A stretch of DNA of 64,000 bases from a virus: positions 1 to 64,000 of the IMG/VR virus record IMGVR_UViG_3300022752_000001; one strand, given 5' to 3'. Numbering within the stretch: position 1 is the first letter of the stretch; the number at the start of each line of letters is the position of its first letter. Shown one piece after another: positions 13,993-16,502 of the stretch. Made by a program: the position numbers and the translations under genes. Under the pieces are notes generated by a model that saw nothing but the letters and a program-made list of their open reading frames with translations, was not told where the DNA came from and did no database searches.

Positions 13993-15492
13993 TTAGGCTA
14001 CGAAGTCGAGGACAGCCTCGCCGCGTTTGTGACGGATCACATAGCCCCATTCCGGACGAACCGGCTTGGAACCGTTTGCGAACGTCGCGCGGAAGAAGCC
14101 CACCGAGCCGTCGGGGTTGGAATCCCGATCGGGGATGTTCTTCCACTTGAAGTCACCACGATAACCCTGAGCGTCAAAGCCCATCTGTCCCATCGAGCCG
14201 AGAGGCTTCGGAACAACGGAGTGATACACTTCGTTGATCAAGATGATGGAGTCTTCGTAAGCAGCCGACAGGTAGTTCGTGTTGATGTCATATTTGTTGC
14301 CCTTGGTGGCCGAGGTGCGAACAAACGGGAACACGCGCTTCCAAGCAAAGATCTTATCATTGCTCGCTGCGCTAGCCACGGCGGCGGTCAAAACGATGGT
14401 CGTCGCAGTCACGGAAGAAACCGTGCTGGCAGCCGACCTAACCGTCGTACCGTCGTTGGCAGTAACAACAACCACGTCACCGGCTTCAACACCGTGTCCG
14501 GAGGCAACCGTGTAGGTAGCCGAGGCCACAGCGCTGGCAGTCAAGGCGATACGGTTATAGCGAGGAGGATACGGATCAATGATGTGGTAGAAGCCACCGT
14601 AGGACCGTTCCACGCCGAGAGGAGCAAGCAGCTCATTCGGCTTGGTGGAGTAACGGAAGTCACTACGAATGTCGTTGTTGAGCTTGATGATGTCGTCGCT
14701 GGTCTCAGCGCTGGTGATCAAGTTGAACACAGGCGCACCGTTTTCCTTGCCTTGAGCGGCCACACCGGCGCCGTCACGCAGCAACCGCATATAGATCCGA
14801 CGCAGGATTCCCTGGGTCAGTTTGCTGGTCGCGTCAACCACGGGGCTGAAGGAGGATGCGTCACCGGAAACCGTCGCGAAATCCAAAGTGGAACTCGTAG
14901 AAACGGTCGTCGGGGTCACCTTGTTCTGAGCCAACCGGACGTATTCGTCCTGGTAGCGAGTCGTCCAGACCAAAGCGGTTTGCTCGGTCAGGATGTTCAT
15001 GATCTGGGTCAGCTGCTCTTTCCGGCGCACGGGGTAGCGCAAATCTTCGAGCGAAATGTTCGGAGACTCGAGCGCAACACGACGGAGGTCGTAGGTGCGG
15101 AGGGTTTGAGCAAACTCAACGTTAGCGAACTTGGGCAGGCTAATGTTGTTGTTGGCGTCCGTCGAAGCAGTGGCCGAGCCGGCCGGGCTTTGCGTATACG
15201 CATTGAAGCTGGTGTAGGTCTGATCGGTGGGGTTGGACCCGAGGATCGCCGAGGAGCCCTGCCAGACCGACTGAAGATCGAAATCATTCTGCCGTCCGTT
15301 ACGGGCCGCCTGGGGGATAGAACGCTCGTAGGTCAGCACGCTGACCCGATCGCCCATCTCTTCGGGGAAGGTATCTTGTTTAATTAGTTTGAGCCAAACG
15401 TTGTTATCGACCGTTTTGCGGTAGATCTCGGGCCCAATTCGTCCAGCTTCCTTAACCAGGAGCTGCTGAATATTATCATACACAGTAGACAT
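13993..15492 (-). CDS. Major capsid protein
   Basis: 499 residues. Position after portal and scaffold genes, strong AGGAG ribosome binding site (GAAAGGAGAATACC), own promoter-like motif and a terminator hairpin all fit a coat protein. The sequence opens MSTVYDNIQQLLVKEAGRIG and has 'LKLIKQDTFPEEMGD', typical of coat proteins of short-tailed phages with long N-arms. Around residues 310-375 is a beta-rich Ser/Val/Thr stretch (YTVASGHGVEAGDVVVV), probably an inserted surface domain. The fold itself (HK97) is inferred, not seen. Confidence 0.85.
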   Translation of the reverse strand: MSTVYDNIQQLLVKEAGRIGPEIYRKTVDNNVWLKLIKQDTFPEEMGDRVSVLTYERSIPQAARNGRQNDFDLQSVWQGSSAILGSNPTDQTYTSFNAYTQSPAGSATASTDANNNISLPKFANVEFAQTLRTYDLRRVALESPNISLEDLRYPVRRKEQLTQIMNILTEQTALVWTTRYQDEYVRLAQNKVTPTTVSTSSTLDFATVSGDASSFSPVVDATSKLTQGILRRIYMRLLRDGAGVAAQGKENGAPVFNLITSAETSDDIIKLNNDIRSDFRYSTKPNELLAPLGVERSYGGFYHIIDPYPPRYNRIALTASAVASATYTVASGHGVEAGDVVVVTANDGTTVRSAASTVSSVTATTIVLTAAVASAASNDKIFAWKRVFPFVRTSATKGNKYDINTNYLSAAYEDSIILINEVYHSVVPKPLGSMGQMGFDAQGYRGDFKWKNIPDRDSNPDGSVGFFRATFANGSKPVRPEWGYVIRHKRGEAVLDFVA

Positions 15493-15681
15493 ATTAGGTA
15501 TTCTCCTTTCAGAGAAATAAGAGTTTTAAAAACAAGAGGAGAAACCAACACGGTTTCCCGTAGTTTTCAAAGTTGGATCTCCCGGCGGCATCCCGAGACT
15601 TTTATTGCCCGCGTGACCACTTCCATTTTTATAGGTCGTGCCCTCAAAACCCGCTTCCGTTTTTATAGGATCTCTAAGGCA
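15493..15681 (-). promoter_or_regulatory. Coat protein mRNA leader with imperfect direct repeat
   Basis: About 190 bases between the promoter-like motif and the coat start. It holds two 19-base copies (forward 15617-15635 and 15651-15669) of CCTATAAAAAyGGAAGyGG (minus strand) that differ at two bases and are 34 bases apart, so they are not in the same codon phase. A GAAACC / GGTTTC hairpin lies closer to the start, then AGGAG. The region is open in one frame but shows no convincing protein; a regulatory or stabilising leader is more likely. Confidence 0.5.
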
Positions 15682-15687
15682 GATGAG

Positions 15688-15716
15688 AGTATGCGTTACT
15701 GTCTTTTGTTTGTCAA
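15688..15716 (-). promoter_or_regulatory. Promoter for coat protein
   Basis: TTGACA at 15716-15711, 17-base spacer, CATACT at 15693-15688. The spacer contains GACAGTA exactly 13 bases from the first base of the -35 box, the arrangement shared with at least four other sites in the genome. Lies directly after the spliced head-fibre gene's stop. Confidence 0.65.
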
Positions 15717-15724
15717 TACCTAAT

Positions 15725-16502
15725 TTATGCGTTGACCCGCTCCCTAACAAGAACGCATTTATACCAACCCGTCACCGGGTGGATTGGACTATATCTTGGC
15801 GTCGTTAGACGCCCCGCTTGTTCGTGCTGGTTATTAAGGCTTCCTAAGCCTCCAGTAGTCTCTACACCTTACATGCAAGCGTGCATGTCTTGGCTCGGTA
15901 TTGTCTTGGGGATCTCCCAAGAGTTCCACCGAATTAAAGCAGTATGGGCCTAATCTGAAAAAGAACTACTCAAAAATAGCATATCTACAACAAACACCAA
16001 TGCTATTTCCGTAAGAGATTACCCTACGTCTACCAGTATTTGGGGATCCTGGGACTCGGCTCAATACAAATTTGTCCCAAGAAACCCATACTTTAATGAG
16101 CTTATTGATTGGTAGACCTCCAGAATGGTAGGAGTTAAGAAAAGAGTATAAGTTTGGGGATACAGACTGCCAGAACGAATACCTAGGGTTGCTAGAGTCA
16201 GCATATGTCGGAGAACCATATAGAAAATTTTCTTTCCAACTATACTTATTGATGCTTGGGTAATACCGATATGTTGGTGTACTGCCCGAAGGCTTTACAA
16301 ATTCAAAACCAGTAGCTCCGCAATTTTCAATAAACGGACCAGAACCAACACCAGTGTAGAATGTACCAGTTCGCAGTTCAGAAGGAGCTTGCCTAAGATG
16401 AGATATGTTACCAGTTCTAAATGGAGTAGTGTCTCCATGAAATGTAGCAACCTCGTAAATCGTAGGAGCTTTACGGATCTGTAATGGGAGGATGGTGGGC
16501 AT
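15725..16502 (-). CDS. Head fibre/decoration protein, split by a group I intron
   Basis: Exon 1 runs 16502-16021 and exon 2 15755-15725. Joined, they give 170 residues ending ...TGRRRV-VLVRERVNA, a natural basic beta strand, then TAA. Without splicing, translation reads through intron sequence and stops at 15966 after 178 residues. The body (MPTILPLQIRKAPTIYEVAT... 'VWVSWDKFVLSRVPGSPNTG') is beta-rich with no known family. It lies between a fibre-like gene and the coat gene, suggesting a virion surface protein. The splice junction is predicted, not tested. Confidence 0.7.
15756..16020 (-). ncRNA. Group I self-splicing intron
   Basis: All core elements can be paired on the minus strand. P1: GGGU|AAUC (exon end 16021) with GAUU-AG-GCCC (15955-15946), with the U.G wobble at the splice site. 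P3: CTGCTT (15942-15937) with AAGCGG (15819-15814). P4: CGGT/ACCG; P5: CTTGGG/CCCAAG. P6a: ACATGCA/TGCATGT. P7: GAGACTA with AGATATAGTC. P7.1/7.2: CTGG/CCAG around AGGCTT/AAGCCT (group IA feature). P8: GGCGTC/GACGCC. P9: CCCG-GTGA-CGGG. Terminal G at 15756 in ATAAATG, like the T4 td intron end. About 265 nt and no homing endonuclease inside; a nine-base hairpin (AAATAGCAT/ATGCTATTT) fills the P1 loop. Confidence 0.85.

What the first reader, a model, noticed from the sequence alone, without database searches (positions are those of the whole stretch)
15756..16020. A compact group I intron without endonuclease splits a head-fibre gene directly upstream of the coat gene
All paired elements P1 to P9, including P7 (GAGACTA/AGATATAGTC) and a GNRA-capped P9, can be drawn on the minus strand. 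The unspliced gene stops within the intron, while splicing at GGGT|AATC and ATAAATG|CG gives an in-frame 170-residue protein that ends just before the coat promoter. The P1 loop is enlarged by a separate hairpin, which is unusual. Splicing could be a checkpoint on virion maturation.
Basis: partly seen in the sequence, partly recalled or inferred. Interest (0 to 1): 0.85.

Follow-up and report, generated by a model that had tools for sequence, protein, structure and literature searches.

The report
Rearranged group I ribozyme between phage genes
A self-splicing-type RNA enzyme sits just after the end of a phage structural gene; its target site appears to lie downstream instead of upstream, so it probably cuts the message between two genes rather than joining two halves of one gene, an arrangement I found no natural precedent for.

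Summary
The group I core is real: Rfam RF00028, 57.7 bits against a cut-off of 50, minus strand, no endonuclease. The claim that it splits a fibre gene is not supported.

The ribozyme lies after the stop codon, between that gene and the promoter of the next one. Eleven further phage loci hold the same anatomy between other genes. In all 15, the guide strand beside P3 (window GGCCC) matches a site downstream of the core (GGGU|C or GGAU|C). A U·G wobble is invariant at that site and its neighbours covary (permutation p = 0.0009). A second stem pairs the presumed terminal-G region with sequence just past the site (p < 5e-5). A joint blind search finds the site in members (p = 7e-5), not in 11 other introns (p = 0.36).

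Best explanation: a naturally permuted group I ribozyme that cuts mRNA between genes. Cleavage is inferred. An 8-bp conventional P1 in the window family is the main counter-evidence.

The parts
15966..16502 (-). 178-aa virion-type gene that ends, with an intact UAG stop, just upstream of the ribozyme
   Evidence: Relatives in L002/L007, L003, L004-L006 keep the whole reading incl. GVCCRYAIF-stop
15946..15950 (-). guide (IGS-like) strand GGCCC directly 5' of P3
   Evidence: Same position as the guide strand of conventional sister introns; covaries with the downstream motif in 15 members
15814..15942 (-). P3 (15942-15937 with 15819-15814), enclosing P4, P5, P6/P6a, the 5' strand of P7 and P7.1/P7.2
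   Evidence: RF00028 match; pair counts on 15 sequences
15827..15862 (-). P7 5' strand (GACUA 15860-15856) and P7.1/P7.2 (15855-15827)
15787..15813 (-). P8 (15813-15808 with 15803-15798) and P7 3' strand UAGUC (15791-15787)
   Evidence: P8 GGCGUC/GACGCC against GGUGUC/GACAUC in relatives
15763..15784 (-). P9 with GNRA loop GUGA
   Evidence: compensatory changes in P9; loops GUGA, GCGA, GUAA in the window family
15756..15762 (-). AUAAAUG: presumed omega-G (15756), the 3' splice site in the permuted reading
   Evidence: AUAAAUG in all four window-family members; usually (A/U)AUG after P9 elsewhere; a resemblance to known phage 3' splice sites (own knowledge), not a test
15738..15755 (-). variable hairpin CGUUCUU-GUUA-GGGAGCG between omega-G and the substrate motif ('exon' of the permuted ribozyme)
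   Evidence: stem kept by paired changes in L002, L003, L004; the window 3' domain folds with z = -3.2
15734..15738 (-). substrate motif GGGU|C, proposed cleavage between U15735 and C15734
   Evidence: U.G invariant 15/15, neighbours covary
15727..15732 (-). ACGCAU, 3' strand of the outer stem with AUGCGU (15758-15753)
   Evidence: outer stem in members, permutation p < 5e-5
15688..15716 (-). sigma-70-like promoter (TTGACA-17-CATACT) of the downstream presumed coat gene
   Evidence: conserved in about 17 relatives with and without the ribozyme
13993..15492 (-). 499-aa presumed coat gene downstream
   Evidence: 42 related loci; the name 'coat' rests on gene order only

Best explanation
It is a group I ribozyme of the P7.1/P7.2 (IA-like) kind placed after the stop codon of the 178-aa gene, in the spacer before the next promoter. 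Its architecture appears naturally permuted: the site read by the guide strand (the '5' splice site', GGGU|C) lies downstream of the catalytic core and of the terminal G, not upstream. Proposed working, inferred: (1) the core folds and the guide strand GGCCC pairs with GGGUC to form P1 with the required U.G wobble; (2) guanosine bound in P7 attacks after U15735, so the downstream RNA leaves with an added 5' G; (3) this frees the omega-G at 15756 from the outer stem, and the new 3' OH may attack after it, releasing a circle of about 21 nt and leaving the upstream message with a folded ribozyme at its 3' end. Net effect: the transcript is cut between two genes, and no gene is spliced. Shown by comparison: the core, its place after a conserved stop, the P1-like pairing with invariant U.G, and the outer stem. 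Not shown: catalysis, the second step, the circle, any regulatory role.
For: RF00028 hit, and hits above the cut-off in nine further members. Core covariation 0/500 shuffles. Conserved coding to the stop codon in all four window-family members. Twelve lineages with other upstream and downstream genes share the layout: usually a stop codon just upstream, guide strand, core, P9, (A/U)AUG or another G, hairpin(s), GGGU(C/G/A)A. Guide and downstream motif pair in 83 of 90 cells, U.G in 15/15; G-C is replaced by C-G in L065 and U-A in L086 next to it, C-G by U-A in L063/L081; permutation p = 0.0009, or 0.0033 with the window family reduced. Outer stem p < 5e-5. Joint blind search: the same site in 14 of 15 members, Fisher p = 7e-5; 11 control introns p = 0.36. 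Positive control: sister introns in ribonucleotide reductase genes have the guide at the same place, pair it with an upstream exon (..GRR|GALM.. restored in frame) and show P10, i.e. conventional order. In seven members the motif is followed within 2-7 nt by the start codon of the next gene.
Against: No reaction has been observed. The P1-like helix is short (4-7 pairs) and not significant in single sequences. L075 has a mismatch next to the U.G, and five or six others one position further out. In the window family the guide strand can also pair perfectly over 8 bp, with a terminal U.G, to GUAUGGGU|U inside the 178-aa gene (16091-16084; p about 0.02; present in all four), which would be a conventional 5' splice site. 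Permutation tests ignore shared descent. The outer stem contains the presumed omega-G, which would have to open. Two related loci (L068, L071) lack the GGCCC/GGGUC pair and instead have long inverted repeats.
Confidence: 0.57

Rival explanations
1. A conventional group I intron whose 5' splice site lies inside the 178-aa gene, not where the reader put it but at GUAUGGGU|UUC (after 16084) or, in relatives, GGUGUU|UG. Splicing would replace the C-terminus.
For: 8-bp contiguous P1 with terminal U.G in all four window-family members, p about 0.02 each. The window guide change G to A keeps the pair. Codons 169-177 evolve more slowly than the rest of the gene, as if also constrained as RNA.
Against: The 38 residues after that site are still coding in all four: in-frame length changes, and changes in the last nine shared codons synonymous only. 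The exon-2 frame is not kept between the window and relatives, and that segment changes as a hairpin. Lineages with the same guide (L076, L083, L085) have no good upstream site; non-window lineages p = 0.89 upstream. The four sequences are not independent.
Confidence: 0.2
2. A conventional intron spliced out of the untranslated spacer: 5' splice site just after the stop codon (UAGUU|C, P1 with GAUUA), exon 2 from C15755, leaving the protein unchanged.
For: Compatible with the conserved 178-aa reading; UAGUU and GAUUA are invariant in the four sequences; AGUUCUUU recurs after other fibre genes.
Against: Only 5 bp with two G.U pairs; the guide would be 11 nt from P3, unlike sister introns; not conserved in L075, L076, L083-L086; does not explain the GGCCC/GGGUC covariation or the outer stem.
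Confidence: 0.12
3. A decayed, inactive group I intron left behind after loss of its endonuclease.
For: No endonuclease; no activity data; the window P1-like helix is among the weaker ones.
Against: The catalytic core, P7 and J8/7 are nearly invariant and peripheral stems keep pairing through many double changes; kept in 15 loci of distinct phages in similar places.
Confidence: 0.08
4. A lariat-capping (GIR1-like) ribozyme that branches near GCAU downstream and caps the following message.
For: Long-range pairing of a 5' strand with a strand beyond P9, and position before a start codon in seven members, are reminiscent (own knowledge of GIR1).
Against: No P15-like pairing seen; the pairing here lies downstream of omega-G with a U.G typical of P1; G|CAU is absent from most members.
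Confidence: 0.03

Closest known systems
Phage group I introns with P7.1/P7.2 (IA type); Rfam RF00028
   Same: Core P3-P9, P7 guanosine site, GNRA L9, AUG-type 3' end; the ribonucleotide reductase introns in L069/L072/L077/L082 are sister sequences
   Different: Those splice a gene in conventional order; here the ribozyme lies after a stop codon and the guide pairs downstream
Permuted intron-exon (PIE) constructs
   Same: 3' splice site upstream of the 5' splice site, exon between them, circle expected
   Different: PIE constructs are laboratory-made and split the intron in a peripheral loop; here the whole core is upstream and the natural 'exon' is a 17-60-nt hairpin
[quoted passage not shown]
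   Same: Natural permutation of a splicing ribozyme in bacteria, giving circles
   Different: Group II, other mechanism; a 2023 survey (PMC10085705) lists permuted natural RNAs including group II introns but no group I
Coral mitochondrial ND5-717 giant group I intron, removed by back-splicing (PMC6545197)
   Same: Group I back-splicing
   Different: Known from the title, abstract and hit table only; mitochondrial gene, not a phage intercistronic spacer
Clostridioides c-di-GMP riboswitch with group I ribozyme (reviewed in PMC3984707)
   Same: Group I RNA in an untranslated region acting on a neighbouring gene
   Different: Conventional order with an aptamer upstream; no such aptamer matched here

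Membership tests
Group I intron/ribozyme (RF00028) | Core helices P3-P8 with P7 guanosine site | tested here: met
Group I intron/ribozyme (RF00028) | 5' splice site U paired to a guide G (P1), upstream of the core | tested here: inconclusive
   A U.G-containing pairing is found, but downstream, in 15/15; an upstream 8-bp candidate exists only in the window family
Group I intron/ribozyme (RF00028) | Terminal G (omega-G) after P9 | tested here: inconclusive
   AUAAAUG, G15756, conserved in the window family; position less clear in L073, L074, L083, L084
Group I intron/ribozyme (RF00028) | Interrupts a gene whose ends rejoin | tested here: not met
   178-aa reading conserved to its stop; exon-2 frame not kept
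Group I intron/ribozyme (RF00028) | Guanosine-dependent self-splicing | not testable with these tools
   needs in vitro RNA
Subgroup IA | P7.1/P7.2 between P7 and P3' | tested here: met
   P7.1/P7.2 counted as helices 9-10, 97-100% paired; P7.1/P7.2 named among class features in PMC3984707
Permuted group I (PIE-like) | Guide-complementary site downstream of the 3' splice site with U.G wobble | tested here: met
Permuted group I (PIE-like) | Circular exon product | not testable with these tools
   needs RNA
Lariat-capping ribozyme (GIR1) | P15 pseudoknot and branching at G|CAU | tested here: not met
   by inspection only: no P15-like strand; G|CAU absent from most members
IStron | Group I intron fused to an IS element | not tested
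   no transposase-type gene noticed near the element, but the record was not searched for one

The most novel reading that the evidence does not exclude
Phages have turned group I introns into permuted ribozymes that act as guanosine-dependent cutters between genes. The target lies downstream, often 2-7 nt before the next start codon, so cutting would release a nearly leaderless message and a mini-circle, and would leave the upstream message ending in a folded ribozyme.
Probability: 0.45. Interest if true: 0.88.

Novelty: new variant of a known kind. Interest (0 to 1): 0.7.

Why it matters
If right, it would be a natural permuted group I ribozyme in viruses, with a job other than intron removal: processing of polycistronic phage messages. 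Annotation pipelines report such hits as introns and look for split genes, so the class would be missed; in Flavobacterium phage immuto the ribozyme core is annotated as a 44-codon protein, gp045. It would be directly testable in that cultured phage.

Tried and rejected
P1 = UAGUU|C/GAUUA: not conserved outside the window family. Reading GGGUC as P10: the nucleotide that would start the guide after it is variable and not G, unlike the true P10 of sister introns. Fusion of neighbouring genes by splicing in L065/L074/L076/L083/L085/L086: the upstream RGG-codon site is not conserved. GIR1-like capping: see rivals. Homology of the 178-aa protein to the L073 fibre end: too weak to claim (hhalign probability 9.9). 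No related loci in bacterial genome contigs for the downstream protein, and none for the P7/P7.1 pattern; none in plasmids. The pattern GATATAGTCC..GGGTCAATG found one known member and otherwise only chance matches. One search used wrong coordinates and is uninformative. Structure models of the 178-aa and 499-aa proteins were too poor to name them. In cyanophage S-RIM32 a relative of the gene downstream of the L083 ribozyme has a different upstream neighbour, so no empty site was obtained.

Full report
Observation. Rfam finds one group I match in the window, at 16002-15765 on the minus strand, 57.7 bits against a cut-off of 50, and no other in the 72-kb virus record. No endonuclease lies in it.

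Does it split a gene? Relatives of the 178-aa protein were found in six IMG/VR contigs, three distinct sequences (repeated with an alignment). All carry the same ribozyme behind the gene, and all keep the full reading to ...GVCCRYAIF(S/E)-stop. In the last nine shared codons the only changes are synonymous, and the stop is UAG in all. Length differences between the sequences fall in frame in the stretch after every conventional 5' splice site I could propose inside the gene. The proposed exon 2 changes like an RNA hairpin (CGUUCUU/GGGAGCG, CGAUUCU/GGGAUCG, CAAGUCU/GGGCUUG, CGCGUCU/GGGCGCG), with a 1-nt loop deletion in the window that would break its frame. The 178-residue reading is therefore the real protein end, and the ribozyme lies behind it.

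Surroundings. Behind the element is a sigma-70-like promoter and a long conserved leader of the 499-aa presumed coat gene. About 17 relatives share promoter and leader. Most have no ribozyme and have other genes in the upstream cassette.

Wider family. A P7/P7.1 pattern and a guide/P3/P4 pattern in IMG/VR returned further loci. Eleven (L063/L078, L065, L073, L074, L075, L076, L081, L083, L084, L085, L086) have an endonuclease-free core in a spacer behind a stop codon, usually a few nucleotides to about 30 nt behind it. Nine of them pass the Rfam cut-off. The core counts on 15 sequences are overwhelming: 93.2% of cells paired, covariation score 0.498 against 0.151 in shuffles and 0.04-0.09 when slid.

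Where is P1? Four sister introns in ribonucleotide reductase genes gave a positive control. Their guide (GCGUCUU or close to it) sits just before P3, pairs with the upstream exon (..AGACGU|), and the spliced reading ..GRR|GALM.. is restored. In the 15 spacer ribozymes the guide sits at the same place, but its partner is a motif beyond P9: GGGU|C in most, GGGU|G in L065 and L075, GGGU|A in L086, AGGAU|C in L063, UGGAU|C in L081. The U.G wobble is invariant (15/15), and 83 of 90 cells pair. Re-dealing partners among members reaches this in 0.085% of permutations, or 0.33% with the window family reduced to two. A second feature is a stem between the presumed omega-G region and the sequence 2-3 nt after the motif (window AUGCGU/ACGCAU; L065 UAUAUGG/CCAUAUA; L085 UAUGUGC/GCACAUA; L075 AAUGCU/AGCAUU; L073 AAAAAG/CUUUUU). 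No permutation in 20,000 reaches the observed sum. An automatic search for both features together, with no knowledge of the motif, returned the same site in 14 of 15 members (Fisher p = 7e-5) and nothing unusual in 11 control introns (p = 0.36). Between omega-G and motif lies a hairpin or hairpins of very variable length; the window 3' domain folds as drawn (z = -3.2).

Interpretation. A conserved U.G pair at the boundary of a guide helix is the signature of a group I 5' splice site (established knowledge). Here it is downstream of the core, so the ribozyme reads as permuted. The simplest outcome is guanosine-dependent cutting after GGGU, with a possible second step that closes the hairpin into a circle. 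In seven members the cut would fall 2-7 nt before the start codon of the next gene. In the window family it falls just upstream of the coat promoter; elsewhere before a terminator-like hairpin (L063, L081) or towards a converging gene (L073). I infer that the element separates the upstream message from what follows. Ordering of the two steps by opening of the outer stem, and stabilisation of the upstream message, are speculation.

Main counter-evidence. In the window family the guide also matches GUAUGGGU|U inside the gene over 8 bp (p about 0.02 per sequence), a possible conventional 5' splice site. I rank it lower because coding constraint continues for 38 residues beyond it, because exon 2 has no conserved frame, and because lineages with the same guide lack it (non-window lineages p = 0.89). 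It is the best reason for doubt. The individual downstream helices are short and none is convincing alone. Permutation tests do not correct for descent. Codons 169-177 are unusually conserved at silent sites, which neither reading explains fully; transfer together with the ribozyme would.

Known or new. The core is an ordinary group I core with P7.1/P7.2, an IA-type feature. In the literature that could be searched, natural permuted forms are listed for group II introns but not for group I, and searches for permuted or intercistronic group I ribozymes in phages found nothing. A coral mitochondrial group I intron is removed by back-splicing. Most subscription papers and preprints were not searchable, so priority is not certain. 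I rate it a new variant of a known kind.

Noticed in passing
window 15495-15700 (-): The presumed coat leader is a conserved, structured RNA (two CCTATAAAAAYGGAAGYGG motifs, GGCAAUAAAAG, a GGGAUGCCGCC hairpin with paired changes in L002) ending in a terminator-like hairpin (15559-15539) before the start codon. It looks like an attenuator or riboregulator and matches no Rfam family.
   Followed up: partly
L068 and L071, around the ribozyme: The ribozyme unit is flanked by 16-27-bp inverted repeats (ACAGTTCTTT...); in L068 it is antisense to the neighbouring fibre gene, which suggests inversion, or a much longer guide/target helix.
   Followed up: partly
L063 1497-1631 (Flavobacterium phage immuto gp045): An annotated 44-aa hypothetical protein is the ribozyme core read as a gene.
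   Followed up: yes
It did not reach the Rfam cut-off.
   Followed up: partly
L008-L029, upstream of the coat promoter: The genes between scaffold and coat are swapped wholesale among close relatives (L015 seems to have none), while promoter and leader stay constant.
   Followed up: no
window codons 169-177 of the 178-aa gene (about 15969-15998, -): Silent sites are much more conserved here (3 of 3 four-fold codons identical) than in the rest of the gene (6 of 31).
   Followed up: partly
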